The notes under the pieces were generated by a model that made no database searches, was not told where the DNA came from, and saw only the letters and a program-made list of their open reading frames with translations. From NCBI GenBank assembly GCA_021018995.1, contig CM037592.1, forward strand, positions 74,837,301-74,901,300: 64,000 bases of DNA, in the 5' to 3' direction. Numbering within the stretch: position 1 is the stretch's first letter; each line of letters begins with the position of its first letter. Shown here in pieces: positions 1 through 61,330 of this stretch. A program made the translations under genes and the position numbers. This DNA is from Chloranthus sessilifolius. Lineage: Eukaryota; Streptophyta; Magnoliopsida; Chloranthales; Chloranthaceae.

Positions 1-24
1 GCGCGAGTGTCGGGCCTTATAAGG
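1..24 (+). promoter_or_regulatory. E1 internal promoter-like tip (motif copy plus TATA)
   Basis: The window opens with gcgcgagtgtcgg, which resembles the CTCGC/GCGAG words in the E1 LTR. It is followed by cttataagg (16-24), a TATA-like box about 210 bases before the additional ORF. W and E5 have the same order, motif cluster then TATA box then ORF, so this is probably the end of a cluster that begins before the window. Confidence 0.4.
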
Positions 25-231
25 GTTTTAACCTTTTTGCTTGCCATTTATGTGAGAACAAAGGGGTGATCTTAGGGTTTTCATCCATCTTCTTACCGTG
101 AACTATCGGACTTTGTTCCAAATCGCTCAAGCGGTCAATCCCCAACAAGATTCCTTAGATATTGTTTGTGAAAAAGGTAAGCTTTACCTTTTTAGAAGTC
201 AATCTCTTTCTTTTGCATAGAAATCCCTAGA

Positions 232-1496
232 ATGGCACCTAAACCACAAATCCTAAGAAGAAATCGACCATCAAACCATAGAGATCTAAGTGAGCTAAGG
301 CAGTTCCTCCACCGAGCCCACAAGTACAACCTGTCGGATGGTGGGATTCTAAGACATTCGAGGTGGAATGGTTGTTTCATAATGATATTTGTAAGGGCCA
401 ACCGGCCACGGAATGGATGATTGATTATCTCAACGCGACCGGATTAAAATCACTCTTGCGGCCATTCCATAGTTTCTACTACCCGTGTTTAGTCAAGTTG
501 TTTTATCAGACCTTACGAACGGACTTGACTAACACTAAATTGATCACCACAATCGAAGAGAGGACCCTTGTGTTTGACAAAAGGGACATTTCCAAGGCAA
601 TGGATTGCTCTTGGGAATTCTTGGTTGATGAAGGTGCAGGGTCCCCGATTTGGGAAATTGTAAATTCTCACCATATAGTGGCCCAAATGACCAATGGGGA
701 GACCAAAACTGGAAAATCTGTTATGAGGGCCCAATTGCCGAAGGAACTATGGCCTTTGGATATCATTTTTATAAAAAATATTTTTCCTTTGGGCCATGAA
801 CAAGAACGACGGGATCCATTTATTCAAGCCTTGTTTGTGGCTCACAAAAATAGGTGGTTTAACACACCTACCTTGGTGAGAGAGGGGATAAATTACACAC
901 ACAACCGTATGAAACCCGGGGCAGTTCCAACCGCGTTGACCCATTTACCGTATGCTCAATTAATTTCTCGAATGATTAAGCAATACGAGGCCCCATCGGA
1001 CACCAACGGCTATGAGATTCACCCGAATGAACCCCAGTATACTGATAATATAAAAAGCTATCGCATTATAGATCTGAACCTTAGCTACACCAGCCTACAA
1101 GGAAGTGTTAGAAGGAGAAGAGAAAGGGAAATAGCGCAACGTGCGCAACAGCAGCACGTACAACGACAACCCCTTCACCCCGGACCTGAGTAGGCCGCTC
1201 ATTCCCCAATACCATCACAACAAGTTCCAGTCCCTTCGCCGATTCCTCCATATGGTGGTGTGGTCTTCGTGGCAAAACTATTTGGAAGGATGGATTTACA
1301 GGACTTGGCACTCCAAAGAGTCGGGCAGCAAAACCGGTAGATCACACTCCAGCTCCATTACCACAAGGCATTACTGACCGACTCGATGTGCTACATGTAC
1401 CCTTCTGACTACTTACAACGCATGGCAGCAGCACGAGCCTATGTACTAGAGGCTTCTAGTTCTGGAGCGAGAGGACCTGAGGACTTTGATGAGTAG
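232..1496 (+). pseudogene. E1 additional ORF, plant-transposon-protein family (aORF)
   Basis: About 420 codons. The start MAPKPQ matches the E5 start, which begins MAP. One frameshift lies near 285-300. The frame from about 310 to 1496 is then continuous apart from stops at 1191-1193 and near 1338. Visible family marks are VEWLFHND, a leucine-rich stretch ending YYPCLVKLFYQTLR, AQLPKELWPLD, GHEQERRDPFIQALF and a C-terminal DYLQRMAAARAY segment shared with E5. The family resembles the plant domain called 'putative plant transposon protein' (recalled as Pfam PF20167, not checked). It has no recognised catalytic motif and its function is unknown. It sits between pol and the 3' LTR, as in Z, W and E5. 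Confidence 0.75.
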
Positions 1497-2350
1497 CCTG
1501 GTGGTGTTGAGGACTGATAGGCGAGTTCGGCTGATAGAGTTTATTTTGGGGGAGTTTGTTTTAAGAATGTAATATGTTAATCATTTTATAGTTTGATGGA
1601 GTTTGGAGTTCTTAAACAATGGTGGCATGGTTTCCATGTGTGGATAGTTTCAAATTTTGGATATGAATGATTTTGATTTAGCATGCTTAAATGATATTAT
1701 ACTTTGATCATTGAATTCATGGTGTCTGTTAGAGTCGTCAATTCTATTATGTGGAAAAGTGTGATAAGAATGTGTGTTTAACTGGATATGTGTGTGGATG
1801 GTTTTGTGTAGCATGCATGGTTGAAATAGTGAATGATTGATGTCCTTGCTAGTGCAGTTCCATAGCTAATTGTGATCAATTATATTGGTGATGAATGATA
1901 CTCCCCAACTTCGGATGATTATAATGGTTATAATTGGGACCAATTATATTAGTTGTAGTTCTCTTAATGGATGAGTGTGGATATTCAATTTTTACTTTTG
2001 TGTAGGTACAACGGTTATATTAGCTTTGACTAATTCCATTATATATAGGGTTATGCTCTCTTGTCGGATGTGAACATTTTGTTACATTGGCTTCATTAAT
2101 GGTTAATTTTGTGGTGGGTGTGTCTTTCAAATTTTGAATGTGTGTTTTCTGTGGTTTTGAAATTTTGAATCAAGCAGGTCATCGTATCCCTAGAAATTGA
2201 CATTTAGTGGAATGTGGGTGATGAAAGTACCTCCTTGTAGATTGTCATTAATTGTCTCATGTAGACAAATCTTGTTGATTAGTGATATGCAAATGTTAGC
2301 CTATTCGCAATAAGGTCACTTAGGTCAATTTTTGAGGACGAAAATTCTAT
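1497..2350 (+). other. E1 3' noncoding segment
   Basis: There is no ORF of note between the additional ORF and the polypurine tract. The end contains tttttgaggacgaaaattct, the block that normally precedes the Tekay polypurine tract. I see nothing else here. Confidence 0.55.
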
Positions 2351-2363
2351 AAGGACGGGAGGA
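2351..2363 (+). other. E1 polypurine tract
   Basis: The purine run aaggacgggagga lies directly before the LTR start TGTAATTTCCCC. It would prime plus-strand DNA synthesis during reverse transcription. W has the closely related aagggcgggagga in the same place. Confidence 0.75.
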
Positions 2364-4653
2364 TGTAATTTCCCCAAACATAGGAAACCGTGTAAGTCAA
2401 ATAGGTACATCTATAGGTGTGGTGCACTGTACCGTTTTGGATTTAGCGAGATCAATATGTGTGTGTGATGACCACTGAGCACGTGAAATTGAGCGAGTAC
2501 CAAGTTCAGTGTGTGGGGTTCGCAAGGGAACCAAAGCAATTTAATAAACACACACCTAGGTGGGTATGTCCTTCACACCAAGCAATTCAAGTGGATAGGA
2601 ACAAGCATACATGGAGTGTATGTGTGCCTCACATTGAAGAAATCACTCTTTGGATAGGTGAGGATGACCTCACGTGAAACCACTTCTCTCTATTATGCCT
2701 TGGTTGATGTGTGTGAGAGCTTAGAGGGAGATAGAGAGAGGGTTCTGAAAGAGGAGAAGAGTTCCTCCAGATTCGTGTGCTCCGAAGCTCCTAGCCTTTG
2801 TGAAATTCTGTGATCTTGTCTGAAAAAGTAGTTGTTGTCAATTGCGATGTTGGGAAGGTTGTGGGGCATGGAGTGTGGCCGAATGGGTTTTTGAAATCCA
2901 TTGTGTGTGAAGAGGGGCAAGCAAAAATCGCTCCGATCCTTGGTTGCAATTCACGTGGATTTTGCTAGCTTAGAAGGTGAGAACCCACAACTCAAAGATG
3001 TTAAAATTGTAGAATTAAATGTCTAGAAATTTATGTGAAGACTGTGAGTAAGATTGATGGAAAATCGCGACAAGAACGAGTCCAGAAACTTAGAAATCTG
3101 ATGAGTTTCTTAATCTCGCTAGTGCGAGCTTTGCTTCTCGCACGTGCAAGATACCTTCAGATAGGCCCCAAAGAGCCTTGCGTACATGAGAAACAGAGAG
3201 AAACAGGGACTCCATTGAGCATATGTTCCTCGGCCGCGTGACCTGGTAGGTGTCATATGAGCGACCCTGCATCTCGAGCACACAAGATACAGAGTTAAGG
3301 CAATTTCGGTTGTTTTCTCTTGAAATTTTTGGAAACTTTGACCATTAGGCTTCCTTAGACTTTTCTAAAGGGTCTTTGAATGATTTGGGATGTAGGTTAA
3401 AGTAGTGACCATCCACATGAAGTCTCAAACAACTTTGTGTGATTCTACTTGCGTCGTGACTGAGGTAGGGGAAACTTAATAACATTAAATCTGATGTGCT
3501 TTGTATAGATTGAATGATATGATAAGATAAGGTATGATAAGTTGATGTGCATTTAAGCCTTTGATTTATGAATCTTTTAAAACAAGCTTTGTAAATGCAA
3601 TTCAAAATGTGACGTGATAAGTGTGTTTCTGTAAACTCCCAACTCGTGTCTGGATTATAGATTTCAAAACTAATTATAGTTTAATCACTTTACACGGTGT
3701 TAAACTATAAGTTAGAATTCGCACATTTATTAAAGGTTCATGTGTAACGAATCCCAAATTTTTCTCCGGTATGGTGGAATATTCGTACATTCCTATCAGC
3801 CAATGGTAAACTTCGTTCGACGCAAGTGTCCCTCACAACGCTGGGACTTGGGCAATTTGTGAAAATGGTTCATTGAACAACGATGATTAGGGATTCCCAT
3901 CAGTATAAGTGTGGCTTTCGATGCTATATTTGTTTCGAATAGTATTTAAGTTACTGTTTTAAGTTATGTTTCAAGATTTGAACCAAGAATTCAAATTGTG
4001 TGGGTGTCATTAAAGTTCAGCATTTTGAAATCCTCGTCAAATGTGGAATGTGCCTATGAAATCAGCTATAGAAATTTTTGCTTTGAAATATAAGATTAAA
4101 TGCTAATAATGTTGACCCTATTGAGCTTAGACTGTTAGCTCACCCTCCGATTATAATTCAGAGGTGCTGAGTTAGAGAAGGAGTTCCATCCGGAAAGTGA
4201 TCCGAAGTACATTCCTGAGGAGGAGATTGAGCCCCTTCCAAAAGTGCTCTTCCCATAGATTGGGATCTGTGTTAGATTTGTTAGTGGTTTTTGTGATTTA
4301 GGCTTGGTACGTCCAGCCATCTTTGGTTAGAGATTAGAATCACGTAATTAATATATATATATATATATTATTTTGTGAACCATTGTTTAGGTGATGGTCT
4401 ACCATCACTGGTAGTTCGTTTCAGTTCTTTTGTCCATGTATCTTTGCATGTAAATAGAATCGTCATTTTGATATGTTTTAAATATAGAAATGGAGATTTA
4501 TTTGCCATATATGATGGCTCTATCTGCTTAGAAGAGATATCTGCTTTGAGTTATGCTTAGTGTGGATGTACCAATTTTTTGATTACTCATGGATTGCCTC
4601 AAGCGGTGGTCCGATAGCTCGAATTTTGGGTTAGTGAAAGTCAGACTGTCACA
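2364..4653 (+). repeat. E1 3' LTR
   Basis: It is 2290 bases, TG to CA, ending ctgtcaca (compare ttatcaca in Z). A block at about 3770-3915 (cggtatggtggaatattcg through gggattcccatcag) is homologous to the E5 LTR read in reverse at about 57420-57600. The segment near 4200 with aggaggagattgagcccc matches the Tekay-type LTR segment in E5 near 57040. A short (AT)n run lies at about 4349-4369. Confidence 0.8.
3064..3290. promoter_or_regulatory. E1 LTR motif cluster (CTCGC...GCGAG words)
   Basis: Short CpG-rich words recur here: atcgcgacaag, ctcgctagtgcgag (3115-3128, nearly palindromic), tctcgcacgtgcaag, ctcggccgcgtg and tctcgagcac. They sit about 700-930 bases into the LTR, like the clusters in the Z and E5 LTRs. 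The role is unknown. Confidence 0.45.
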
Positions 4654-6337: not shown

Positions 6338-6348
6338 TAAGCTAAAAA

Positions 6349-7212: not shown

Positions 7213-8743
7213 TGTGCAACCGTGGGCTCTTGCGAGTTCGTCGCGTCGATGCGCACTCTCTAAAAAATGATGGAGTCGCCACCCAGAGCTTTTGATGACC
7301 CATGATACCTCAAAAATTAATACATAAGCACCAAAGTGTAAAAATATGACTTCGATTTACCAGTCTTTGCCAAAGGCTCTTTGGTAGGGGCTTCGATTAT
7401 TGATCGAGAAGGTGTTAGGTACTCGATCAATCTGCTCGTAAGCGGTCTTTACTTATGGCCAAATGATAAAAAAATGAAATAAAATGAACGACACTCCTCC
7501 TTGCTCGAAGGCACTATGATCCTATTTGAGCCCCCCCGCAATCACCAGAATTTCGGTGGCGTGACGGCTCAAATTCTATGATGGGAGGAAAGCAACAAAA
7601 GGTAGAAGAATATAGGGGGGAGTCAGAGCTCTCGACCCCTTGTAGCACCGCTGTGGACCTTCGCGTGTGGATACTTCCGGTGAACTTCTAATAGCAAATG
7701 GGTTGAGAAAATGGTCTTAGCTTCTAAGGTTTGAAGGCTAGATGGTAGAGGAGGTAGACTAGGACCTAATTCTTGCTAAAGCTAGGAGATTAATGAGGGA
7801 AAATAAGGTGTAAAGGGTGAACTAAGGTTCTGGAATTTTTGGAGTTTTAATGTTAAAATGGGAGAAAGAAATCTCTAAACGTTTCTTGCCTTTGGAATTT
7901 TTTTCAAGCCCTTAAGCAAGGAGGGGTGGCTTTCTATTTATAGAAAAGGAGAGGACTAGGGTAGGGTTTATGTCCTAATGGGTTTAACAATTAGGTAATG
8001 GGGATCTAAGGTTTCCTAGGGCTTAGTTAGGTGGGATCTTGGGTTTAATGGTAGATGATAGGGTGGGAGTTTTTGTGGCAAGAGGGTTATATTTAGGCTA
8101 GTAAGGGTACTAGGGTCTGAGAGAAACCAACCGCAAACTTTGGGGTGGTCAAAAAGTCAAACCTCAAAGAAGAATCTCAAACATTTTCTCAAAAATACTA
8201 TTCCTCAGTCTTGCGTGTATATTATACACGCTAGGCTTAGGAGCAGTGCCCCTGAGAAGTCCAGAGCCCGTTCTGTAGCTCAATTCTATAGGAAGAAGCC
8301 AATTTTTCCTTGCGTGTATAATATACATGCAAGGCCAATTTTAGTAAAAAATTGGCCTAGCGAATATAATATACACGCTAGTATAATTTTCAATGTTTCT
8401 GCCCAATTTTCCAACCACCATAACTTTTGATATATAACTCAGATTGAGGTGATTCCTTGCTCGTTGGAAAGCTGGTAACATCCTCTTTCATTGGTATAAG
8501 ACTTAGTTCTAGAAGATCTGTCTATAAACCTTGTCATTCCTGTCTCCATACACTGCTCAAGATGGTTCAAAATGGGTCAAGAAAGGGTTTTATGTGTTAG
8601 GGTTGACTCATAAAAGTCTGGGAAAGGTTCCTAAGGGTATTGCTTAAGTTCTAAGGGTTTATTAAGTGCTTTCAGAAACTCGAGCGTACGCCTTTCTCGA
8701 AGTATGTGTCGATCCAGCCTTGGGCCAAATTTGGGTGTCTACA
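7213..8743 (-). repeat. O 5' LTR
   Basis: It is 1531 bases. On the minus strand it starts TGTAGACACCCAAATTTGGC and ends GGTTGCACA. A TATA box (CTATAAATAG on the minus strand, 7934-7943) lies about 800 bases in, with the palindrome cluster upstream of it. The right flank gtatc would be the TSD. Confidence 0.75.
8213..8378. promoter_or_regulatory. O LTR palindromic motif cluster
   Basis: Three copies of the 19-base palindrome: perfect at 8213-8231, and near-perfect at 8312-8330 and 8360-8378. They lie about 270-440 bases upstream of the LTR TATA box. The perfect symmetry suggests a dimer binding site or an RNA hairpin. Confidence 0.7.
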
Positions 8744-9425: not shown

Positions 9426-11548
9426 GAAACGCTGATCTAAAATCTAATCAAGAACCCATTCCTTCTTTAAATCCTTTCCAGAACTTGGACGTGTACATCG
9501 AGTTTCTGTCTAACACGATTTTTACTGGAATGCCATGTAGTCTGACAATCTCTTTGAGGTATAGCTCTGCGAGTTGACTGGCAGTGTACCTTTTGCTATA
9601 TGGTAGGAAATGAGCTACCTTTGTCAAGCGATCAACTATTACCTAGATCGCATTGTGACCCTTCATAGTTGGAGGCAATCCATGGATATAACCTCCTATT
9701 TCCATTCCGGTATTGGGAGTGGTTGCAGCAGCCCAGAGGGGTTTCGATGAGCGACTTTTACCTGCTGACACAGTAGGCATATCGAAACATACTCAGTGAT
9801 GTCTTTCTTCAAGCCTCTCAACCAGAACCTCTACTTCAAATCCTGGTACATCTTGGTACAACCAGGATGGATGGCATATCACGATTTGTGAGCTTCTTCT
9901 AAGATGGTGTGTCAAAGTTCGACATCAATCGGTACACAAAGTCAGCCTCTAAATACTAACTAACCTTCCTCCCTGATGGAGAAATCAGGTCTAATACCAC
10001 TAGTCAACCCCCGTATAAAGACCATTAGCTCTTCATTGGTCATTTGCAATTCATGAATTTTGTCAAATAATGTTGGTTGTATGGTAATGTTAGCCATTAG
10101 GGCTCCTGATTCTCTCACCTCGAATCTCATGTCATATGCTAATATTTCCTTGAATAACTGCCACCTATGGATCCTCGTGATGAGATGTGATAGTTGGGCA
10201 GATGACTTTCGACTTAGTGCATCTGCCACTACATTCGCCTTTCTAGGGTGATACTAAATGGAGCAATCATAGCCTTTAAGGAACAATCATAGTCTTTAAG
10301 GAACTCCATCCACCTTCTTTATCTCATGTTTAAGTCCTTTTGAGTGAATAAGTACTTGATCGTCAATTTATTCATAACGTCTCCCCATACCAGTAGTGTC
10401 ACCAAATCTTCAGAGCAAAAATGATGGCTGCCAACTCAAGATCCTGTATCGGGTAATTCTTCTCGTGATCTTTGAGTTGTTGGGAATCGTAGGCAATGAC
10501 TCTCTTGCATTGATTAATCATACAACCCAACCCACTGTGTGACGCTTCGTCGTACACCATAAAACCTCCATTGCCTGAAGGCATGGCAGGTGTTGGTGTC
10601 GTGGTTAACTTCTTTTTAAGCTCCTGAAAGTCTTTTCACACGATTCGGTCCACTCAAACTTGGCATTTTTCCTCGTGATCTACATGAGCGATCCTGAAAT
10701 CTTGGATGAGCCTTTGACAAACCTGTGGTAATAACCAGCCAACCCAAGGAAGCTACAAACCTCTGTCATTGTCTTCAGTTGCTCCCATTTCACAATCACT
10801 TCAATCTTGGCTGGGTCGACTGTAATGCCCACTTTAGGGATGACATGTCCCAAGAAGCTGACTTGTTTCAGCCAGAATTCACATTTGTTCAGCTTTGCGT
10901 ACAGTCAGTGATCACAAAGCATTTGAAGGGCTATGCACAAATGTTGTTGATGACCTTCTCTCATCTTCGAATAGATGAGTATGTCAACTACGAAGATGAC
11001 CATGCACTTATCGAGGCATGGTCTCATCAACTTATTCATAAGGTCCATAAAGGATGTTGGTGCATTTGTCAACCCATATTGCATTACTAGGAATTCATAT
11101 TGACCATATCTCATACGGAAGGCAGTTTTCAGAATGTCTTCTACCTTAACCTTCAGCTGGTGATATTCTGACCTCAAATCAATCTTCGAGAAAAACATAG
11201 CACCTTGGAGCTGATCGAAGAGGTCGTCGATTTGAGGAAGTGGGTAATAGTTCTTGTTCGTCAATTTATTCAATTGATGGTAATCAATACACAGTCGCAT
11301 CAAACCATCCTTCTTTTTAACAAACAGAACTGGTGCTCCCCATGGAGAGACATTAGGTCTGATAAATCCTTTCTTTATAAGCTCCACAAGTTCCTTCAAC
11401 TATGTTGGGGCCATGCTATATGGTGCCTTTGATACCGACTTAGTGCCTGGAGCCAGATCAATTGCAAACTCTACTTCTCAATTTGGTGGTAATCCTGGCA
11501 GTTCTTCAGAAAACACATTCGGATACTTGCATGCAATGGGGATGTCGG
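9426..11548 (-). pseudogene. pol: Z pol remnant: RT, RNase H, integrase
   Basis: The order on the minus strand is as follows. A pre-RT linker (FSEELPGLPP) carries two stops. RT spans 11399-10905 with [25 protein letters not shown] and [11 protein letters not shown]. RNase H (about 10584-10250) has [22 protein letters not shown] and, after stops, MADALSRKSS. The integrase zinc region has CLLCQQVK, and the core has VDRLTKVAHFLPY and LDRNSMYTSKFW. The RT catalytic motif reads FVVD where family members, including E5, have FVDD. Integrase ends at AFHPH, so the glutamate normally in DGQTER is missing. This copy cannot be active. Confidence 0.9.
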
Positions 11549-14244
11549 TGTTATGCACTGAAAAGTACCACTTTTCACCTCTTAACCTAGCCTTTGATGG
11601 ACCTTGAAGCCCACTAATAATCATTTGTTATATACGTTTTATAATTAGTAATAAAGTGTGCAGCTTAATACAAACTACTTGCCTTTTGGCACAAAAGAGA
11701 GAGAATGCACTCAAAGATGACAGCTAAGACAAATCTTGATGGAACACCTTGGTAGTGCTCACCATGGTGACTCGCTATTGCTGGTCATCATTGACCCAAA
11801 CTCTTACAGATGACTGAAGTCAGCTGAGAAGGAAGGATGCTATAATAGTAGCAAGTGTTGTGTAGCAGAGTGTCAAGAAACAGACCTCACAGAGTTGAGA
11901 AGCCTCCTCGTGAAGCTAAAGATGCAGTGGAACAAGCTCTCACACAGATAGGCTACGCAGTCAAGAGGAGAGCTGTAAAGACATCACGAAGATCTCGCGG
12001 TGTAAAACCTTCAGAATTTGTGGTCGTGAAGCTCTCGCGGAGATCAATCCTCAAAGTAGCTGTGTGAGGAACACAGCGAGCCCATATGTATAAAGAACAA
12101 AAGTCACCTCACGGAGTTCTCGCGTTGCCCTGGAACAGAGAGATGCCTAGAATTCCCCTTCACACAGATCTCACACACTCTAAAGCCTTACAAGCTACTA
12201 TGCGAGCACAGGAGCCAACCTGCATGAGTACTTAGCGAGAGAGAGAGCTCCTAAAGCTCTACTACGCGAAACACCCTAGCTCTCCAGATCACCTCCGTGA
12301 CAGCATTGTGACATGAAGCAACTGCGCGATTCATTAATGGCTTTCTGTGCGAATGAGCCCTTCCCATCAGCCACAAGCATCTCCGCGAAGGCAAAGCAAC
12401 TGTGTGGGTAAACTAAAACAGCTTCTAGCCCCACGAAGCGTGGGCTCTCCACTTCTCAATTTTAGCGCAGGGACCTTTTAGGAATTTCCCAAGGTTAGGG
12501 CACACTTCTCGAGACATAAATTTTGAAGAACACATCTCGAGGCATTGAAGGGTTATAATAGTCCCACGTCTGCTAGAAAAATTAGGGTTAGTCTCTTTAG
12601 AGCCAAGGCCAATTTGATAATGTATATAAGTCGTACTTAGAGCTTCTTTTTAGTATCTTTCCTTCATCCTCTGTCAGCTGAGATCTCTAGCCGGCTAGGG
12701 TTAGGATTTGATCACCTCTTTTTTCTATTTCTCTTCTCTCTTAGCTCAGCACTTTCGGGCTAATCCCCCCGTAAGCAGCTAGGTTTAGTTTTGTTTCAGT
12801 TTTGTAATAGACCTTTGTATATATTGGGATTGTGGATGAGCAGTTATGTATAGGTTGCAGCCAGGAGATAGTTCATCGTAAGTTTTGTTTTTTTGTAATG
12901 AATTGCTATTTTAATGCTTAATCAAATTTGTAGATCTTATGGTTTCTATAGGTGTCTATAGGATCGATGTATTTGGGACTAGCCCATTCAGTTTCTAGTA
13001 GATCTATTATTTACCATCTGATTTCCCTTGGTTTGATAGACACATGAAAAGTAATGTTGGATCTGTAGTGAGATCCAGGGAGCTGGGAGGCCTATGGACC
13101 ATGGTGGTTGCAACAGTTTTTATGTTCTTCCTCAGACCTCTGTGGGATGGACAGACCAATGGGATACCCTGTGACCATTCAAGTGGATAGAGTATAGCCC
13201 TAAGGTTGTGTGCATCCACATGTTTGAGAAGGATTCTTCTCCCCTGCACATGAGCTTCTAGAGCCTTGTGAGGAGGTTTGTACAGTAACTGGCACCCCTC
13301 TGTTTTACCTAATCGATATCAGATGTTAGATCTGATCTCATGTAGTAATTGAAGCTTGAGGCCGAGTCATTGCAAGCCGTTTGTAGCAATGACCAACTGA
13401 ATCTAAAGCCTTATTCAACCTGTTGCATGGTCCTTTTTGTGGGCACTAGTGAACAGTTAGCAATAGCAAAGCACTTAAGATCTTATGGTTGGAATACCTA
13501 TGAATGTTAGCCAGGCCTGTGCGCAGATCTGGGGAGCTTGTAGCACTGGCATTACATAGTGCTGCAATAGTATTCATAGCTAGAGCTGGTCCAGTGGCTG
13601 TGGAGATGATCGGTCCACTCCTCTAGATTAGACCAGCGAATTCCTAGTTTAACTAATGGGATTTGATAGACTTTATTGGATACCCTGTGACTATTGGAGT
13701 GGACAGAGTATAGCCCTAAGAGCGCCTCAAATGGCATGGGTTAAACTAGGAGCTTATACCTTGTTGAGGCTTTTAATAGCGTCTCAATAAGGAGCACTGC
13801 AGAGACAGACTAAATCTGAGTTACATTACTACATCATTGACTCTAGCTTAAGCTACTTACTTCTCATAATTCTTGTCTTTTATTTAGGCACACACTACCA
13901 CCATCTTCTTCTTAACCCTTTCTTTATGATAGAGCTATATTTTATTTCTCTGCTTTTAGGATTAATTTAGTGTAGTTGTGACACCCAACTCCCTTTCTTT
14001 AGGATTGTCAGATCTGTAGCCAGATCTAAAGGCCAACTATTCTAGCCCATTTTGGATTCTAGATCAATTTCTCTGTGGGACAAACTCTTACTTATCAAAA
14101 TTTGCTACAATAGAACCTGTATCTTACATGACTGTGTTTATTTCAGACTTGCTGTGCTGACCCATCTCCAATTCCCCACTCTTGATTTATTCTCTCTACC
14201 GTTCTTAATAAAATAACAGCAAGAGTCTCGAAATAATGTCAACA
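11549..14244 (+). repeat. Y 5' LTR
   Basis: It is 2696 bases, TGTTATGCACTG to gtcaaca. Next to the start is an inverted pair gaaaagt / actttt. A TATA box TATATAAG lies at 12623-12630. An internal duplication has its two parts near 13160-13215 and 13675-13725 (ggataccctgtgac ... agtatagccctaag). Confidence 0.9.
11849..12440. promoter_or_regulatory. Y LTR motif cluster (CTCGCG words)
   Basis: More than a dozen variants of ctcgcgg, ctcgcgaag, tacgcgaaac and agcgagag, many with CG decayed to TG or CA, upstream of the LTR TATA box at 12623. The words match those in X in element orientation and those upstream of ORF2 at 16494-16816. Confidence 0.65.
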
Positions 14245-32128: not shown

Positions 32129-32133
32129 CTCCC

Positions 32134-47191: not shown

Positions 47192-47402
47192 GCTTATATA
47201 ATGCAAAAATCACTCGCGTGATTTCCAAATTCATTCAAGCAAAAATCAGTTTACACTGAGCCGCTTGAAAATTCGCCAGAGCAATTTCCATGAGAAAGAT
47301 TTGGCCTGGAAAAATCTCTCGAGTGATTTATTTTAATGCTGTCTAGAGGCTTTTTTTGAAGAATTCGCTCAAGCAATTTCCAAAATCCGCTCGAGCAAAT
47401 TG
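47192..47402 (-). promoter_or_regulatory. W internal promoter-like region: motif cluster and TATA box
   Basis: In element orientation, CTCGAG-type words (tttgctcgagcgg, attgcttgagcg, cactcgagag, attgctctgg, atcacgcgag) span 47402-47211 and end at a TATA box TATATAAGC (47200-47192), about 205 bases before the additional ORF start. The words equal those in the Z LTR. The layout suggests separate transcription of the ORF. The remaining noncoding sequence to 47611 shows nothing else. Confidence 0.6.
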
Positions 47403-48704: not shown

Positions 48705-50195
48705 TGATTAGTCACATAATATACCATTTTATCACCCTTAACTTAGTGATGCTAGGACTTAGTTTGCTACTAATAAGTTAACGATGTACAAATATTAAGG
48801 AAAATCAGTTTAAGGGAGCTAAAATGTTAATCTTCATCAAAATGAACTCAAAAAGAGCAATAAAAGATGATTAACCATAAAAAGATGATTTGCTATATAC
48901 TGAGAACTAAAAAATTATGAAAAGATGATTGAGCACTGCTACTAAAGAAGAAAATGAGAAATCGTAATTTACGATTTCCTAAAAGACGTTCAAGAAGCTG
49001 AAGCGATACAGAATGAAAAGCGATGAATCGTAATCCAGAGAATCACCCAGAGAGGAAGTTATGAAAGATAGAAAATTGTGATTTATGATTTGCCAGAAAA
49101 AGAGACAAAAAGAGATAATCGTGATTCACGATTATAATTATGAAGCTTCCTGTTCAGTATCACTGCTGCTGATCATGTGAAGATTCCACCTCCATGAACA
49201 GAATTCGAAGAACTCTTGAATTAGATGTTTGGCTGATCACAGATTTGAGAAGATTGATGAAGATAGACTCCAGAAGATCTCTACTACGAAACAATCCAGA
49301 AGTACATCAACTAAAGGAAGCAAGGAACTATAAAATTAGAATTAGAGTTATATTAGGATAGTTTTATTTTTTTATTAGAATTAGAAGTCTTGTAAACTAA
49401 TTCCTTATGATCTATAAATAAGAGAGCCCGGTATAGGAATAATCATCGAAGAAATTCTCAGCATCAATTGACGACTGAGGTTAGGTTTTCTTTCGATCAA
49501 ATTTAGAGTAGATTTTTATTGCTTTGTAGATTACATATCCACGGTTTCTCAAGAGCAATTGACAATTGCAATTGTGAGCTGAAGATTAGAGTGGATATCT
49601 ATAGTTTCTCAGAAGTAATTGATGACTGCGGCTGAGGAGTGAAGGATATAATTTTTATTGCTTTCTAGTTTAGATTTTATTTTCTTTTATTTCCTGCTTT
49701 GTAAACATCTTCACATTTTAATTTGAATTGATGACTCAGATTGAGGTTTACAGATTAGTGTATGGTTTTTACTTTTCCATCTTCAGTTTTCTAGAATTTG
49801 ATTGATGCCTAAGTTTTAGGAGATTGTTGATTTGATTAAATCTGTATTTACAGGATTTTAGCATTGATTGATGACCGATTCTAGGAGACTCATTATATAG
49901 TGTAACGATACTATTTAAATTTATAAATATCCGATAGCTGAATATTGTGATTGACGACCATAATCTGAAGAAGGAGAATTAGGATTTATTTTCTTCAACT
50001 GAGTTTTAAAACAATTTTTTTATTCATATTTATCCAGTAGTTTAGGAACTTAAAAGATAAGTATAAGTTTTCATTAAAATTTAGTATAATTTAACCTATC
50101 TCTACGGGAACGATCCTTTGTTAGTATTATGATTTCCATTGTGTACTTGCAATAGGTTGAAACTTAATTAGATATACATAAAAGTAGCCCAATCA
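48705..50195 (+). repeat. T 5' LTR
   Basis: 1491 bases, TG to CA (agcccaatca), with a TATA box ctataaata at 49412-49420. Repeated phrases of the type 'caattgaYgactg' appear near 49468, 49557 and 49618. No 3' partner is found in the window. Confidence 0.75.
48960..49133. promoter_or_regulatory. T LTR motif cluster (ATCGTRATTYACGAT)
   Basis: Four near-palindromes: atcgtaatttacgat (48961-48975), gaatcgtaatcc, attgtgatttatgatt and aatcgtgattcacgatt (49117-49133). They lie 280-450 bases upstream of the LTR TATA box. Confidence 0.7.
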
Positions 50196-52054: not shown

Positions 52055-52386
52055 AGATCGTAATATCATACCTACTGTACATTATAATGAACAATCGTAT
52101 GGATTTACGATTAATCGTAGTCATGTTTCTAGGTAAAAGCGCAGTGATTGCGATTGTTACCTACTGAAAGCTAGAATCAACCGATAATTCTAGGTTAAAA
52201 CTTACATGATGATCAGCTCAGCAAGTCATCACTGAAAGTAGGACCCACATATTTTTCAAAAGGATATGTCGGTCCCATTTTCAAAAACCATCCAAGTTTC
52301 TCCCCCCACATTCCCTTGCCTTTTCAAATCGTCCGTAATCTTAACCGTTCTCCTACCCTACCCAACCATTTTATTTTCTATATATC
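52055..52386 (+). promoter_or_regulatory. T internal motif cluster and TATA box upstream of ORF2
   Basis: Copies atcgtaatat (52056), aatcgtatgg, atttacgatt and aatcgtagtc (52092-52120), and gattgcgattg, followed by a TATA box ctatatatccc near 52378-52388, about 200 bases before the first ORF2 ATG. The words equal those in the T LTR. The rest of 51931-52590 is noncoding. Confidence 0.6.
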
Positions 52387-52590: not shown

Positions 52591-55222
52591 ATGATGAATA
52601 AGACAGGCAAACGACAAAGGGAAGAAGAAAGAAAAAAACAAGGTAATAGTTCTGATAACACCCTAATCATTCATCGTATCACACAGCCTGCTGCCCTTAA
52701 GGCCAAATCAAAAGCAGCAAATCCACCTGAGAAGAACCCAAATCTTTCGGGGTAGTATCAAAGAAAAGCCTCAGAACACAAATGAAACAAAATCTGTGTC
52801 TGCCCCTAAAAAGGGGCTAAAATTAGATAAAGGAAAAAAGCCAGCATCCTCTACCACACTAGCAGATAGACTCCCTACATCAATGAGACACCATATCGTG
52901 GGAACCGAGATTGCAGTGGACGTTGAGTCTTTAGAAAAATTGGAGATGAGTGGAGAAGCTATTAAATATTTCAAGGATGCCGGCCTGAATTATTTATTAG
53001 AGCCAGGAGTCACACCAGTCTATCCTAGATTGGTAAGGCTGTTTTACAAAAATATGATTAAAAGTAGCCAGGGACCATCCCCAATCCTCTCCACCAATAT
53101 CGATGGACTTTCAATCCACATTACAAAGGAAATGGTCGCCAGGGTGATGCATGCACCCTTAAAAATACCACAATTGTCCCAAGATAACCCAGAGGACAAC
53201 CTTTTAAGGATGCTATCGGATACCCTCTCTGACTTTGCCCACATGACAACAGAATTATTAGGAAAACCTCCACGGGATAGGTCCTTTTTCCTATGAAAAG
53301 ACTTGGAAGCAAAGAGTTTATCTCTATAATTCTTCAACGTGCTAATTCATAAGACCATTCACCGCACGGGTCATGGAACACAAAGAAGGGCACTATTTGC
53401 CAAGGCATTGTACTTAATGGCAAATCGCTATTGGTTCAATGTGTCCTCTTATCTTTGTGAAGTAATTACTATTGTGAGGGAAAAACTGAGTCAAGAAAAA
53501 TACTAGATGAAGAAATTGACTCTGCCATTTGTGGGCCTTATCACGAATCTACTGATGAGCATGGGGTATAGTATAGACCCCATGGAAAAAGCGTTACCAA
53601 GAATAGAGGAAGGCTTAACAATCACAGCTTATAGGAGAACTTTAGGTACTGAAAATAAAAGAAAATCCCACTAATTCCTCACACCAAAAGTATCTCCTCT
53701 ATGTCACAAGTACCATAGATTCATGTGGACCGAGAAGTGACTGCCATATAGCAGCCAGCAGAAATTGAAGCCCCAAAAGAAGTAGTCATGGAAGAAGGTG
53801 TGAGTACTTCTACTCAACTTCAGGAGAGAGCAGAGATAAGCTCTCCGGCACAAGAAAGAATAACTGAATCAAGAATCTCAGTTGCAGACCAAGCCAATCT
53901 TTACGACCCTGCTTTGGACTCACTAATAGGACCTGCTATGCCCCCTTCAACAGAGGGAGACAAACTGCCAGTTACTCCTGAGTCAGACCCTGAGAGCCCA
54001 AATGTTGAGATACACCAAGAAATTCTTTCCACAATTGATCCACAGATGACTGACATGGCTACTTTGAGCCAAATCCCTGTATCTGAAGAACCTGTTGCTC
54101 AGCCTACAATTTCAGCCTATACAAAGCAAACCCTCATAGTTCTAACTGTTGAAACAGAACAAAGCTCCGAGTTATCAAGAGAGCGGTTTACAGAATTATT
54201 AAATGGAGAAGAAGCACCCCCTAAAGATCTTCAAGTCACCACCACATCAATTCACAAGTTAGAAAGGAGATTGACGGCAGTGGAGCAATGGCAACTCATA
54301 CCTGACCCAAATCTATTGCCATTATCAGAAGTAGAAAGAAAGGTGAGAAAACTAGAGCAATAGATCTCTACAAATGCCCCACCTTTGATACAACTGCTAG
54401 GTATAGTAAGAAAATGGATAGAGGAATGTCGAGGACTAAAGAAGAGAGTCTTGGATACTACCTTGACAGCTCAAGAGCGAGCAGAAATAATAAAAGCTTG
54501 CAAAGAAAAGTTATACAAGATCAAGGTGCGAGATGGGAGCCGAAACAAAAAAACGAGTCCAAGATGCCACTTCAACCCTTCAAGCATAGATTACCCAACT
54601 ACAAGCAGAGAATAGAAGACTGAGTGAAAATCAGCTAGCTTGGGAACAAGAAAAAAAGGTGTATGAAGATAAAATGGCAGTCATACATGAAAAGTTTGGA
54701 GGGTTAATGGTACCATATGACGATGCAAAAAGTGTAAGAGAAAAAGTCCTTAAAGACTACCAGCAGAAGCTCCATCAATAGCAAAATGAAAAAGATCATC
54801 AATTGACCATAGCTGATGGGAAAATTTTACAACTGCAAGAAGCTCAAACCTCCCTAAACTCAATCAATGCAGAACAATAGTAGATCATTGAGTCCATAAC
54901 GACGAACAACTTAGTCACCGTGGCAAAAGAACAAGATAAAGCAGAAAAGCTGAGAAGTGAGATACGGTTTAAATCTGCTGTGATCAAGAAGCTGACTGAG
55001 GATTTGAAAGAGAAGGCTAATAAGGAGCAGCAGTGTAAAGATGAAACTTCTTGCCAAAGGATTGATGAAAAGGAAAACACGGATGCTGCTGAACTGTCAG
55101 TACATGGGGATTTACCTTCAGATGAAGATCAAGTGGGATATTCTACTGCTGAGGTATCTGACTTGGAAGATGACCCTACTACTTCTATTTCTACACAACA
55201 CCAATCATCAACAAGTGAGTAA
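52591..55222 (+). pseudogene. T ORF2: aORF domain, acidic linker and coiled coil
   Basis: Basic N-terminus (MMNKTGKRQREEERKK). The family core (52796-53670) has AIKYFKDAGLNYLLEPG, YPRLVRLFYKNM, THGTQRR-type and ALYLMANRYWFNVSSYLCE segments. A Ser/Glu/Pro-rich linker (53788-54363, 191 open codons) precedes a long charged helical part (54385-55222) with KLERRLTAVEQW, EERAEII-like and KAEKLRSEIRFKSAVIKKL, and a Ser/Thr-rich acidic end. Stops and shifts lie near 52757, 53296, 54363 and 54780-54880. Same domain order as X and Y ORF2. Confidence 0.7.
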
Positions 55223-56683: not shown

Positions 56684-58932
56684 TCATTGACACCTTTTAA
56701 AACCTAAACACTTGGCACATTCACACAAATTGCAACAAACCATAAAGTCTAACTAAAAAGTTAGAGCCATCATAAAGAAAATAAATCTTCATTTCTATAT
56801 AATGATGAACTAAACAAAATGATCCCAAAAGACGGTTCTAATCTCATGTCAATCGCATGAGCAAAATAATCGAACCGAACCATTAGTGACATACAATCGT
56901 CACCCAAGGATGATTCGCAAAAAAGAAAACCATAGCGTAATATCACATCAATTCTATCTTAACAATGGCAGGATGTACAAGGCCTTACACACAAAATCTC
57001 AAAATAAGCACAGCTATATTCGCTAAAAGAAATCCTTAGGAGGGGGTTCGGTCTCCTCCAAAGGCACGTATAAAGGATCCTCCAAATCTAGATCCTCTGT
57101 ACCTGCAGCAACCTCTTAACTATAACATATAGTCGAAGGGTGAGCTACATCATATCTCAATAGGAAAAAGTAATAGTATGCATATCTTTCACATCTCACA
57201 TATCTCTCATGACATAATTCAGAGCATATTTTCTTTAATGAAAATCACAACTAGAAAGCATAGACATGGACAAAATGAATAACTGATGCATGTTTCAAAA
57301 CCACACTTAACGTAATTTCAAAAGATTGTTCTTGTTTCACATACATAAACCATTTGCATAGGAAGAAATTAAATTTGATCACTTAAATAGTCCCTCGACC
57401 GTGTATAACATCGAGCCCTGATGGGAATACCCTCCATCGTCGTTCACATGAACCCTTTTTCCACAAAAATGCCCAAGCTCCTTTGAACTAGGAGACTTGT
57501 GCCGGACAAAGTATTTCCACAGATTGGAAACCAAAGAACCAATATTCCGCCATACCAGAATACAAATTGTACGAATATCCTGCCGTACCGATCACAGATA
57601 TCCTACCGTGTCTGTCACGAATATCCCATCATGTCGGTTGGGTATCCATAAAACCTTAAATCAAAGTGCATGATTACTGATAGTTATTCCCATGAGTTTG
57701 TGATAATTATAATAGTTCAAAGTTCTCAAAGAGTTGACACACCTTTTTTATACACATCATTTTGATGTCACATTCACAGAATTAGATCCTTTTAGTGTCA
57801 CGCTCACACTTCTCATGGCACAGAAACACCCACACATATCTTTCTTCTTAGTGTTCATACTTACAAAGTTCTCATATTAAAGCTATGAACGATAAACATG
57901 TTACTAGACAGACCAAGTCCCAAAACACATGCACACTCTTATCATATCATTATTGCCATGCTAGTTGAAATCAAATATACATGTTAAGGAGTTTTCCCTA
58001 CCTCACACGAAGTCCAAACAAACTCTTCCTAATTCGAGCTAGCTTTTTAGCTCAATTATTCTCATACCTAACCTATACAAATTCAAAGTCCCTACATTTG
58101 AACTGACGTAAAATAGAAAGGTATAAAGTCTCCCCAAAGTCCACAAAGAAATTCAAAACAAAATGCTGAATTTGTCCAAACCGATCGAACGGTTTCCCCA
58201 AATCACTTGATCGATATCAAAACAATCGAGCGGTTTACAGAGAAACCAACCTTACTCAAGTGCCACATTCTGATCGATCGATTCCAAGCCGCTTGATCGG
58301 ATTCCCCATTTCGTTCGATCAAAATTAATTCCTATTGAACGGCTTTCTCAGAAACTCACACACTTCATTTCTTTAATAAAACCGATCGAACAGTCACTTA
58401 TTTCAATCGAACGATTTTGTCAAACTTTGCACATTCGCAGGTTTCAACTTCTTTAACTCATTTTCCTTGAAACAAACTCCCAAATTTTCAAATTTCCACA
58501 CCACATACTACTTAAATTCCTAACACATACGAAAAATATAGCTTAATCATAATTCTTACCTTTTTTGTTGATCAATCTTCTCGATCCATGTTCTCATTTC
58601 AAGCTAGGATTGGAGGCTTTGATTCTTCGGAATCCGAATTTCAAAATCTCACACACAGTCTTAACTCCCCGTACGCATTATCATATGCATTCAAAGCTTC
58701 TTCCCTTCTCTCTCTCTTTATAACTCCTCAACAACCTAAGCAAGATAATTTATTTCTCTTACCTCTTCTCAACCATGGTTTATACGCACTTTAATCTTTT
58801 CTTTTTTATCCACTAACTAGGTCAACCAACTCTCATTAATATTTTTAAGGTTTTATCTTATCCGGTGTGTGACCTGTCGGGCACGCACATCGAGACCTAC
58901 TGTTCAAAGTTCTAAATTTTTGGGACATTGCA
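56684..58932 (-). repeat. E5 3' LTR
   Basis: The minus strand starts TGCAATGTCCCAAAAATTTAG at 58932. It is homologous to the E1 LTR in the block around 57420-57600. A TATA box (GTTATAAA, minus) lies at 58718-58725. Three or four 23-base tandem units of the gaatatcctgccgtaccgatcac type lie at about 57541-57650. Confidence 0.75.
58181..58420. promoter_or_regulatory. E5 LTR motif cluster (GATCGAACGGTTT words)
   Basis: About nine variants: gatcgaacggttt, gatcgatatc, atcgagcggttt, gatcgatcgatt, gatcggatt, gttcgatc, ttgaacggcttt, gatcgaacagt and atcgaacgatttt. They lie 510-750 bases into the LTR, downstream of the candidate TATA box. The same words recur before the additional ORF. Confidence 0.75.
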
Positions 58933-59513
58933 TTCTCTCCTCCTTAAGAATTTTTGTCCCTGAAAATTGACTAATGGTCCCCCAGTTTGTCACTTCCTAT
59001 GGAGTCAAGTACTCATAGACACACGACATCTAATAATCGAATGGTTCCTCCTATTAGAGAAACCAATCCTTTAACGAGGATTCATCAAGTCATAATTTAT
59101 ATAAAATGCTAGGCAAGGCTAGACCATCAGCAAATCACCTAATGAACAACAAAACATATTACACAGTAAATGATGGTATTCACCATCACATACAAGACCA
59201 TGTGGGTCAATTTAACCCATCCATCGTACCTGCAGAGAAGCGTATTCACAACTTGCACATCCTATAAAGACAATCCTATGCACATTCGAATATTTCGCCA
59301 AAAGTAAGTTTACCATTCAACCACATCCAAAAAGTTATCTAAACCGTCAGGTGGCAACCATGCCACAATAGTTTTTAAAGACCTCAAGAAGTAGCAACCA
59401 TGCCACAATAGTTCTAATGGACCTATGTCCAATTTCACCAATTTTAATTATAATTTCTCAAAAAGTAATACATTGAACCCCAAAAAGAAAACCATATACT
59501 CCATGACTATCGC
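58933..59513 (-). other. E5 polypurine tract and 3' noncoding segment
   Basis: The minus strand reads aaggaggagagaa directly before the LTR, preceded by cagggacaaaaattctt, the Tekay signature. Upstream is noncoding. A direct repeat gcaaccatgccacaatagtt occurs at about 59346 and 59395. Confidence 0.75.
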
Positions 59514-60787
59514 TCACACCACAGCATCACTAGGCTGGTCCTTGTCTTCATCGCGTCCGCCTGTACCAGAGCCAGACACCTCCGGAATCCATGCTTGAGC
59601 CGCTGCCATGCATTGTAAATAATCTATCTGGTACATGAAGCGCTTGGCCTCGGCATGCAAGGCATCATGATAGTATAACCGGTGATTCATCTGAGTATAA
59701 TTCTCTATCATCTGGCGCGTGCTCTCAGCCAACAAAGCGTAGACATCGACAATGGTAGGCGTAGGGGCACTCAGGTGTGGTGGTGGTGCACGAGTCTAAG
59801 CACGTTGCTGAGGTGGAACTACAGCAGTCGGCTCATCTTGAACTGGTGCATCATGATCTGGTTGTTCATGGTCTTGTGGCTCAGGTGGCATTTGCACTTC
59901 ATCCTGTGGGCGGTTTACCAATCGGTTATAGGTCTTGTTCCATTCCTTTATACTATAGGGCTTCACATTGTCAGTCAATTCAGCTCACTCTTTGAAAGAG
60001 TATAGGTGCCATCACTGGCATAGTCCTCGATCATAATGGAAACAAGACAGGCATAGGGTATGTTGTCAATGGGTTTAGCCGCTCCCTCTAACATTTTCTT
60101 CCTAGCATATTTCATGCCCTAAAAAATGACCTTTGGCGCACAAAACCATCAACCATTAAATGCAGAAAATAGAGCCATCTGAATCTCTCCTACTCTCTCT
60201 GTCTTATGTCGCAACGAGTATAAATTACATTTGAAGATTGTATCGAGCATCCATAGCTCGTGCGGTAAATTCACTCTCTTGACTGTTGAACCAGACCCGA
60301 GCTTGCCCTGGGTCATTTGTTCTGCAACAATCTTATAGTCCACAGGCGCTGGGAAAGGCTCTGTCAATTCAATTTCGCTACAATACTTCTCGTAGCATTC
60401 CATGGCGTCGGAAACATCGGAATAGGTAAACTCGTAATTTCTGTTATCTATTTTGGTGCAAAGGGCCCTTGGTTTATTACTATCATGCATATTTTGGTAA
60501 AATAGCCTCACAAGATGAGGGTAGTAGTACTCGTTAAATGGTTGGAGTATACCCTCCAAACCTGCCCTAGTAATATACCTAAAAGCCCAATGTGTCTCCT
60601 CATGCTTTGCAAACAACTTCTTACCAATAATCCATTCGATTTCAAAATCCTTCACAGCCCACAACTTGTTGGGTTGCTCATGTCATTGGGGTGGTGGCTA
60701 TGGCGCTGTCTATTGTGGTGGTTGTGGTTGCGACGAACCCGATCGTGATGAGGTTTGTTTCGACGTTTGTCAAATTTTGGGTGCCAT
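59514..60787 (-). pseudogene. E5 additional ORF, best preserved copy (aORF)
   Basis: The start MAPKI is followed by a short basic, Thr-rich segment, then one long open stretch (60664-60149): FEIEWIIGKKLFAKHEETHW, GLEGILQPFNEYYYPHLVRL, FYQNMHDSNKPR, NYEFTYSDVSDAMECYEKYC, VNLPHELWMLDTIFKCNLYS and VGEIQMALFSAF. The C-terminal part (59978-59514) has LTDNVKPYSIKEWNKTYNRL, a Pro/Gln-rich linker, and YQIDYLQCMAAAQAW before an acidic end. Breaks are few, and none falls in the core. The family has no known enzyme motif. It is located 680 bases after pol. Confidence 0.8.
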
Positions 60788-61035
60788 TACAACCAGAACA
60801 AATCAAAGGAACTAGGGTTTTCAAACAGCTAACAGAATCTAAGGAAATTACTAATTTCAATCTCAAAAGGTATAGGGTTTACCTTTGGAAGAGCTTGGGT
60901 TTCATCCTTGTGAAGATCTGAGCATCAAAAGTTTCGGATCAGAGTCTGAAGGTCTCCCAAATCAGAATACAAGAAAAACCCCCAATAGGAAAGTCAGTTA
61001 TTAATTTTTTTTTTTTTGAACTAAAATGCATGTCC

Positions 61036-61330
61036 CATATATATAATTATCGAAATCGATCGAACAGTTTAAAATTGTTCGATCGATTTCCACTCATAAA
61101 TGCACTGGTCGATAAATTCGATCGAATGATTTTCATATTTCGATCGAACGGTTTTGATATTTTGATCGAACGATCACTTATTTTGATCAAACGATTTTCA
61201 TAGTTCATTCTATCAGCCCAAATTGGCTCGCTGTCCTTGTGATTTTAATGGAACTTTTTTCACAGATACACTGTGTCTCTCTTTCTGTCAAATCGATCGA
61301 ACGGTTTTAGGTTTCAATCGAACGGTTTGA
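61036..61330 (-). promoter_or_regulatory. E5 internal promoter-like region: motif cluster and TATA box
   Basis: In element orientation about eight words of the aaaccgttcgatcga type span 61330-61055, followed at once by a TATA box AATTATATATATG (61048-61036). The ORF start is 250 bases further. The words equal those in the E5 LTR. The rest of 60788-61467 is noncoding, with a poly-T run at about 61004-61018. Confidence 0.65.

What the first reader, a model, noticed from the sequence alone, without database searches (positions are those of the whole stretch)
1..61330. Family-specific CpG-rich motif clusters at conserved positions in LTRs and before internal ORFs
Seen: each element carries many copies of its own short word, in the LTR and again upstream of an internal ORF. 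Pairs are X 20478-21035/31350-31930 and 27233-27415; Y 11849-12440 and 16494-16816; T 48960-49133 and 52055-52120; E5 58181-58420 and 61055-61330; Z LTR 41334-41487 with W 47211-47402; O 8213-8378 and 5821-6337; E1 3064-3290 and the window tip. The words differ between families but placement is alike, and several are perfect palindromes. Known: VANC proteins of Arabidopsis VANDAL transposons bind family-specific short motifs in their own noncoding DNA and counter silencing. Inferred: the element-encoded ORF may recognise its own family's word, giving a self/non-self regulatory system in LTR retrotransposons. RNA packaging or host-factor binding are alternatives.
Basis: partly seen in the sequence, partly recalled or inferred. 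Interest (0 to 1): 0.88.

Follow-up and report, generated by a model that had tools for sequence, protein, structure and literature searches.

The report
Self-tagged palindrome arrays in plant retrotransposons
Several different families of jumping genes in one plant genome carry, in front of related accessory genes and again in their end repeats, regularly spaced copies of a family-specific, mostly palindromic DNA word that looks like the binding site of a protein, most likely the one that accessory gene makes.

Summary
Five of seven pairs hold (Y, E5 strongly; X, T, Z/W moderately). E1 is not significant; O's word is real, but both clusters lie 3' of the nearest accessory ORF. Elsewhere in the genome, 37 of 41 regions 5' of ORFs picked only for matching PF20167 (Transposase_32), and 13 of 13 5' of E5-ORF relatives, carry a significant repeated word.

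This layout was published in 2010 for Ty1/copia Sireviruses (LTR plus 5' of 'ENV'). New here: the accessory ORFs of this genome's Sirevirus-like elements and of the window's Ty3/gypsy elements link to one family, PF20167; arrays with unrelated words keep a 21-bp (two-turn) register, the X/Y group excepted; 29 of 52 arrays abut a TATA box; words track ORF similarity.

Best reading: the ORF protein binds its own palindromes at an internal promoter and the LTR, as a self-addressed activator or anti-silencer. It would work like foamy-virus Tas or VANC and is filed with neither. Binding is inferred; the structure model was uninformative; some Sireviruses break the pattern.

The parts
18793..21242 (-). 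3' LTR of element X (element on minus strand, nested in Y)
   Evidence: 92.8% identical to 29671-32135 over 2471 bp
29671..32135 (-). 5' LTR of element X
20478..21035 (-). X LTR word array (ACTGCGCGAGG / CCTCGCG type); second copy 31350-31930
27233..27415 (-). X pre-ORF word cluster (weak, 2 copies in the test)
25879..27021 (-). X accessory ORF, PF20167-like, two frames
   Evidence: PF20167 E 0.0003 (21 bits, below cut-off) for 25876-26541; tblastn to Y and E1
28722..29381 (-). X gag (PF03732)
   Evidence: E 2.9e-17
11548..14242 (+). 5' LTR of element Y (3' LTR 35254-37951)
   Evidence: 88.6% over 2700 bp
11849..12440 (+). Y LTR word array (TCTCGCGGAG type)
16494..16816 (+). Y pre-ORF word array
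17223..18185 (+). Y accessory ORF, two open pieces; no Pfam match of its own, but 69% identical to L047, which passes the PF20167 cut-off
48960..49133 (+). T LTR word array (AATCGTAAWTTACGATT type)
52055..52120 (+). T pre-ORF word cluster; TATATA at 52379-52384
52667..53587 (+). T accessory ORF, PF20167-like (E 0.009, 16 bits, below cut-off)
58181..58420 (-). E5 LTR word array (ACCGTTCGATCGAA type)
61055..61330 (-). E5 pre-ORF word array, 8 sites; spacings 19-22, 43 and one of 110 bp
61038..61045 (-). TATATATA box 10 bp after the last E5 site
60014..60682 (-). E5 accessory ORF (open 60152-60682); no Pfam match of its own; tblastn to the E1 ORF 4e-41; 150 relatives listed of 41330 first-look candidates
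62245..64000 (-). E5 pol: RT, RNase H, then a weak integrase zinc finger (Ty3/gypsy order)
41334..41487 (-). Z LTR word array (AATTCGCTCGAGCGAATT type)
47211..47402 (-). W pre-ORF word array; TATATA at 47195-47200
46120..46881 (-). W accessory ORF, broken; no Pfam match for the piece scanned
8213..8378 (-). O palindrome cluster (GCGTGTATAWTATACACGC), 3' of the ORF at 9407-8754; further copies at 6271 and 6319
294..1190 (+). E1 accessory ORF (299 aa open), weakly PF20167 (E 0.012, 16 bits, below cut-off)
3064..3290 (+). E1 putative LTR word cluster, not significant

Best explanation
The clusters are binding-site arrays on double-stranded DNA for a dimeric protein, and the protein is most likely the product of the element's own PF20167-type accessory ORF (the so-called env-like gene). 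One array lies in front of the ORF as part of an internal promoter, one in the LTR. The ORF product would bind both, switch on its own gene and the element's full transcript, and/or shield those promoters from silencing. Each family's word has drifted together with its ORF, so each protein serves its own family. SHOWN by computation: arrays, shared words, 21-bp register, TATA adjacency in 29 of 52 arrays, site conservation in one copia group, ORF links, covariation. INFERRED: protein binding, its identity, activation versus anti-silencing, dimerisation.
For: (1) Loci chosen only for the ORF carry arrays: 19 of 21 pre-ORF regions beat all 15 of their shuffles; 18 of 20 further loci scored -lg p 6.6 or more, while 39 of 40 pol windows scored 6.0 or less (the 40th, 8.3, contains an LTR array); 13 of 13 E5-ORF relatives beat all 30 shuffles. 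(2) The accessory ORF is what Ty1/copia elements and the Ty3/gypsy E5 have in common. (3) Adjacent sites lie 20-23 bp apart in 73 of 143 spacings of 12-60 bp, 11.7 expected if even; one representative per word group 25 of 58, 4.7 expected. 10.5-bp periodicity V 0.67, n 68 (best period tried 20.5, V 0.68); longer spacings alone p 0.0001. Genome-wide, 2378 exact CGGACGTCCG pairs with gap 0-30, reversed-pattern control 0; of the 50 plus-strand places listed (the first ones, all on contig C1) 38 at 20-23 bp, 11 at 40, 1 at 33. (4) 29 of 52 arrays have TATAWA 5-45 bp after the last site, 4.4% at random points. (5) In 16 copia copies, site columns are 95.3% and spacers 81.4% identical; CpG kept 94% in sites, 60% outside; flanks of neighbouring sites 0.30 identical, near chance. 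(6) Words covary with the ORF. (7) The L020-type ORF (394 aa) has no strong hydrophobic window (maximum 1.26), a basic N-terminus and a strongly acidic stretch; a coiled-coil-like tail was judged by eye.
Against: No binding data. The AlphaFold model of the E1 ORF is unusable (pLDDT 47) and no solved relative was found for L020, so a DNA-binding fold is not shown. The X/Y clade lacks the 21-bp register (V21 0.00, V10.5 0.32, n 15). The five window LTR arrays tested (X, Y, T, E5, Z) have no TATAWA within 200 bp, only 4 of 18 copia pre-ORF arrays have one at 5-45 bp, and T's pre-ORF TATA is 259 bp away. Linked parts covary by descent alone. Copia-gypsy ORF homology is remote (hhalign E 0.0005, probability 31%); of the window ORFs only E1, X and T touch PF20167, below its cut-off, and the pieces of Y, W, E5 and O scanned do not. 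In Bousios 2010, six ENV-containing Sireviruses lack the boxes and four without ENV still carry LTR boxes.
Confidence: 0.58

Rival explanations
1. The arrays are sites for different host transcription factors; each family recruited its own, and the ORF has another task (envelope-like or unknown).
For: Bousios 2010 mainly recovered stress-factor-like matches for the words. LTR boxes occur without ENV in four Sireviruses, and six ENV-containing Sireviruses lack boxes.
Against: The same 21-bp register for unrelated words and word-ORF covariation are not expected from assorted host factors. Among box-carrying Sireviruses the linker copies occur only with ENV.
Confidence: 0.21
2. The arrays act in RNA (packaging, dimerisation or hairpins that feed small-RNA silencing).
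For: Palindromes can pair between copies; maize Sirevirus palindromes have been linked to small RNAs (recalled, not read).
Against: Two-turn phasing is a double-helix feature. Dyads with no loop make poor hairpins (general knowledge, not computed here). 29 of 52 arrays lie just upstream of a TATA box, outside the transcript it would start.
Confidence: 0.07
3. Neutral origin: CpG-rich short repeats spread by slippage or gene conversion, with no function.
For: Some arrays (L040, parts of L057) show tandem units.
Against: In the copia group sites are conserved above spacers, CpG is kept and flanks of neighbours are unrelated; repeated words lie 5' of the ORF in 50 of 54 regions.
Confidence: 0.05
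4. The ORF protein binds the arrays but represses (copy-number control or immunity against sister copies) rather than activates.
For: The same anatomy would serve a repressor; foamy-virus Bet shows that such circuits can carry a brake.
Against: An acidic protein in front of whose gene the array lies suggests activation, but only weakly.
Confidence: 0.12

Closest known systems
Sirevirus repeated motif (RM) boxes, Bousios et al. 2010, PMC2829016 (passages and section 9 read)
   Same: Palindromic family-specific words, many copies in the LTR ahead of TATA and again 5' of the ENV gene; CpG islands. Vitis CGGTCGACCG equals the core of the L033 word and Usier GTCGGACGTCCGAC contains the main copia core found here.
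   Different: They described them as Sirevirus-specific against other Ty1/copia, found no common binder and could not conclusively identify a promoter before ENV; no 21-bp register was mentioned in what I read. Here also in Ty3/gypsy elements with a related ORF.
VANC of VANDAL transposons (Hosaka 2017, PMC5735166, passages read)
   Same: Element-encoded protein with family-specific short motifs dense in its own noncoding DNA; motif and protein diverge together.
   Different: VANC21 motifs (YAGTATTAY) are not palindromes and lie in one orientation, often in tandem repeats, in DNA transposons; no sequence comparison of VANC with this ORF was possible here.
Foamy-virus Tas and internal promoter (PMC1224871, passages read)
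   Same: [quoted passage not shown] its DNA-binding product activates both LTR and internal promoter.
   Different: No sequence relation was tested; activation here is inferred.
Athila-type 3' accessory ORF (sunflower Athila aORF partly matches PF20167; PMC11728184, passages read)
   Same: Same Pfam family after pol in a gypsy element, predicted nuclear.
   Different: No motif array was reported in the passages seen; the lineage of the window's gypsy elements was not tested.
Retand TRP28 antisense ORF (PMC11963269, passages read)
   Same: Accessory ORF between pol and 3' LTR with predicted DNA binding.
   Different: Different domain (PF04195), antisense; tandem repeats rather than palindrome arrays in the passages seen.
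En/Spm TnpA (recalled, no call)
   Same: Element protein binding repeated short motifs at its own promoter with epigenetic effects.
   Different: DNA transposon, unrelated protein.

Membership tests
Sirevirus RM arrangement | Palindromic repeated word in LTR and 5' of the env-like ORF | tested here: met
   copia loci; window pairs: (5 of 7; X and Y words only imperfectly palindromic)
Sirevirus RM arrangement | CGG-CCG core | tested here: not met
   present in the main copia group and L033; absent in E5, W/Z, T, X, Y, L041, L042. One Sirevirus of the 2010 table, Tnd-1, lacks it too
Sirevirus (Ty1/copia) membership | copia-type gag/pol domains | tested here: not met
   copia domains in all six loci whose upstream ORFs were scanned (L013, L016, L020, L022, L025, L027; genus not tested by a tree); not met for window E5 and O, which are gypsy
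PF20167 Transposase_32 | Score above the Pfam gathering cut-off (45 bits) | tested here: inconclusive
   met by 8 of 8 genome ORFs scanned, which had been picked by this family; window E1, X, T score 16-21 bits, pieces of E5, Y, W, O no match, but they chain by 46-69% identity for X and Y and by tblastn
VANC/VANDAL | Mutator-like DNA transposon encoding VANC | tested here: not met
   elements have LTRs, gag or pol
VANC/VANDAL | Protein binds own motif and removes DNA methylation | not testable with these tools
   needs DAP-seq and methylomes
Tas-like internal promoter circuit | Promoter in front of the accessory gene sharing sites with the LTR | tested here: inconclusive
   TATAWA 5-45 bp after the last site in 29 of 52 arrays; transcripts not tested
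Envelope protein | Signal peptide and transmembrane helix | tested here: inconclusive
   hydropathy only: no 19-residue window above 1.26 in nine L020-type ORFs, nor in L043 and L047; L041, L037, L039 reach 1.75-1.89

The most novel reading that the evidence does not exclude
The env-like gene of plant Sireviruses and the accessory ORF of Ty3/gypsy elements are one family (PF20167) of sequence-specific DNA-binding regulators. Together with their phased palindrome array they form a portable self-recognition module found in both LTR-retrotransposon superfamilies, with new specificities arising as protein and word change in concert: a retrotransposon counterpart of VANC and of foamy-virus Tas.
Probability: 0.5. 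Interest if true: 0.88.

Novelty: new variant of a known kind. Interest (0 to 1): 0.74.

Why it matters
What the plant env-like genes do is an open question (PMC2829016 calls their role highly controversial). A phased, family-specific site array in front of the gene and in the LTR gives a direct, testable answer: a self-addressed regulator rather than an envelope. It would also provide a natural set of protein-word pairs for working out how DNA recognition evolves, and a way to see how retrotransposons may escape silencing family by family.

Tried and rejected
Protein database search with the E1 ORF: 420 candidates, none at E 0.001 or better. PDB sequence search with the L020 ORF: none up to E 5. 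AlphaFold of the E1 ORF with a 10-row window alignment: unusable, so no fold search was run. A matching target duplication for O was not found. The top word for L035 was an unrelated upstream repeat; its real array was seen by eye. L037's 'pre-ORF' array is its LTR. L009, L027, L038 and L044a gave no significant pre-ORF word. VANC EMBO J 2022 (PMC9016345) is not held. CpG content as such was rejected as the defining feature (L037 word).
Full report
WHAT THE WINDOW IS. It holds nested LTR retrotransposons. X (LTRs 18793-21242 and 29671-32135, 92.8% identical, minus strand) sits inside Y (LTRs 11548-14242 and 35254-37951, 88.6%). E5 carries RT, RNase H and a weak integrase zinc finger in Ty3/gypsy order; O, which aligns with it, an RT and a weak integrase core. 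X and T have a PF03732 gag and Y a homologous gag; no pol was seen in X, Y or T, but they were not searched exhaustively. The E1 ORF finds a related accessory ORF in all six other elements by tblastn: Y 17223-18185, T 52667-53587 (plus); X 27021-25879, O 9407-8754, W 46881-46120, E5 60682-60014 (minus). The Pfam link is PF20167, Transposase_32: E1, X and T score 16-21 bits, below the cut-off of 45; the pieces of E5, Y, W and O scanned gave no match. The 8 genome ORFs scanned, which had been picked by this family, are all above it. One of them, L047, is 69% identical to the Y ORF and 46% to the X ORF.

THE OBSERVATION. Claimed clusters have CpG o/e 1.05 against 0.41 elsewhere. Learning words in one region and testing them in its partner gives strong support for Y and E5, moderate for T, one-way moderate support for X and Z/W, and none for E1. 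O's palindrome is real, but both clusters lie 3' of the ORF and the pre-ORF region is missing at the 9419 junction. So 5 of 7 pairs stand.

GENOME-WIDE. Loci were chosen by the ORF alone (top Pfam hits and a spread of weaker ones, not a random sample). 19 of 21 pre-ORF regions beat all 15 of their shuffles (for L035 the top word was a different repeat, but its array was read by eye; L037's region is its LTR). Of 20 further loci, 18 scored 6.6 or more; 39 of 40 pol windows of the same loci scored 6.0 or less. 13 of 13 E5-ORF relatives have arrays above their 30 shuffles (L068 only just, 4.5 against 3.9). Words include CACGGACGTCCGTG, TGCGGACGTCCGCA, GTCGATTAATCGAC, GCCTCGCGAGGC, GGTYRACC cores (read by eye) and three sister words in the E5 group. 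In the copia loci a second array sits about 1.5-1.7 kb after the ORF match start: 15 of 20 have two or more sites there, and in L016, L025 and L027, where both LTRs were in view, these sites lie in the LTR. One search tested words learnt pre-ORF against the downstream region of the same and of other elements. Own counts clearly above shuffles: L037 5, L041 6, L043 11, L017 4, L020 4, L025 5, Y 6, E5 5. Hits elsewhere were mostly in relatives (the L041 and L043 words in each other; the CGGACG words among copia loci, L035 included; the Y word in X), but not only: the L037 word also occurs 3 times in E5's region. Own counts were weak for L033 (1, fewer than in L025), L040 (2) and L013 (1), zero for L035, X, T and O, and 2 and 1, no better than chance, for W and E1.

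TWO SUPERFAMILIES, ONE ORF. All six CGGACGTCC loci whose upstream ORFs were scanned show Ty1/copia domains (L013, L016, L020, L022, L025 pol domains; L027 a copia gag and Pol_BBD). I call them Sirevirus-like from layout and words; no tree was made. Bousios et al. 2010 described palindromic repeated motifs in Sirevirus LTRs and 5' of ENV (passages; section 9), including CGGTCGACCG (Vitis) and GTCGGACGTCCGAC (Usier). That part is known. The same paper notes six ENV-containing Sireviruses without the boxes and four without ENV but with LTR boxes. The Ty3/gypsy occurrence, the shared PF20167 ORF and the register were not found in the open-licence library by the searches; subscription journals and preprints are not covered. 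Copia-gypsy ORF homology is remote: hhalign E 0.0005, probability 31%.

REGISTER. In 22 regions with other words, 73 of 143 adjacent spacings of 12-60 bp are 20-23 bp (11.7 expected if even), with further peaks at 42-43 and 62. The 27 copia-type loci show 20-22, 41 and 81, and also 75-77. Periodicity at 10.5 bp: V 0.67, n 68 spacings of 90 bp or less (the best period tried was 20.5, V 0.68); longer spacings alone p 0.0001; the X/Y/L047 clade is not phased at 21 bp (V 0.00; at 10.5 V 0.32; n 15). Genome-wide, 2378 exact pairs exist with a reversed-pattern control of 0; of the 50 plus-strand places listed, the first ones and all on contig C1, 38 are 20-23 bp apart, 11 are 40, 1 is 33. These loci are related copies, so p-values are guides. 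The repetition of the register across unrelated words is the stronger argument.

PROMOTER CONTEXT. 29 of 52 arrays have TATAWA 5-45 bp after the last site, chance 4.4%. The 29 are 11 of 11 copia LTR arrays, 4 of 18 copia pre-ORF arrays, E5 and W pre-ORF, 10 of 12 E5 relatives, and L042 and L047 of the four loci of that group. It fails for the LTR arrays of X, Y, T, E5 and Z (5 of 5). Most copia pre-ORF arrays are followed by TTTTTTTAAAAA-type or TTATAATC-type runs instead. Leaders of E5, W, Y and E1 also hold a donor-like GGTAAG, GGTAAA or GGTAGA; X and T do not in the stretches scanned.

CONSTRAINT AND COVARIATION. In 16 copia copies, site columns are 95.3% and spacers 81.4% identical, CpG is kept at 94% against 60%, and flanks of neighbouring sites are unrelated (0.30) (L009, L016, L023 and L027 of the 20 were left out). 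Sites were labelled on the commonest letters, which favours conserved columns somewhat. Word similarity follows ORF identity (15 loci rho 0.54; 9 families rho 0.52; 7 gypsy-side rho 0.59; 2000 permutations each; E1 and O were not included, and pairs with under 30 aligned residues were dropped). Within the E5 group, the share of E5-type cores falls with ORF identity (rho 0.78, 14 loci). Co-descent of linked parts can produce this; only recombinants could separate the two.

THE PROTEIN. The L020-type ORF (394 aa) has a basic N-terminus, the PF20167 core, a stretch of net charge -14 in 40 residues and, judged by eye, a coiled-coil-like tail, with no hydropathy window above 1.26. L047 has a lysine-rich stretch (net +13 in 40). 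For a sunflower Athila ORF of the same Pfam family nuclear location was predicted (PMC11728184, passages). My AlphaFold model is unusable.

MECHANISM. Most likely the protein binds its dyads on one face of the helix at two promoters, its own and the LTR, giving a self-addressed switch. The closest working analogues are foamy-virus Tas, which activates LTR and internal promoter by direct binding (PMC1224871, passages), and VANC (PMC5735166, passages). It is not filed as a member of either. Whether it activates, de-silences or represses is open.

Noticed in passing
L055:435-812 (0.4-0.8 kb upstream of the window start): An integrase tail with a chromodomain (PF00385, PF24626) lies just upstream of the E1 ORF, so E1 may be a chromovirus with a PF20167-type ORF, or a nested junction.
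   Followed up: partly
9419: O joins a W-like accessory ORF (80% to 46231-46909) directly to E5-like pol (65% to 62245-64000): a deletion or recombination junction.
   Followed up: partly
5860-6235: GC-rich stretch of repeated GGCCCGGG-type words unrelated to the O palindrome.
   Followed up: no
42000-42413 and 43542-44126: Tandem repeats of about 85 and 35/71 bp between Z and W.
   Followed up: no
32253-33281: 343-aa open frame in Y with a partner in X (24458-24640), no Pfam match: possibly a second accessory ORF.
   Followed up: no
leaders of E5, W, Y, E1: Donor-like GGTAAG/GGTAAA/GGTAGA between array and ORF, suggesting a 5' UTR intron in an internal transcript.
   Followed up: partly
L027: Short copia element in which a pol-type domain (Pol_BBD) is in one open frame (772 aa) with the PF20167 ORF and the pre-ORF array is gone.
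   Followed up: no
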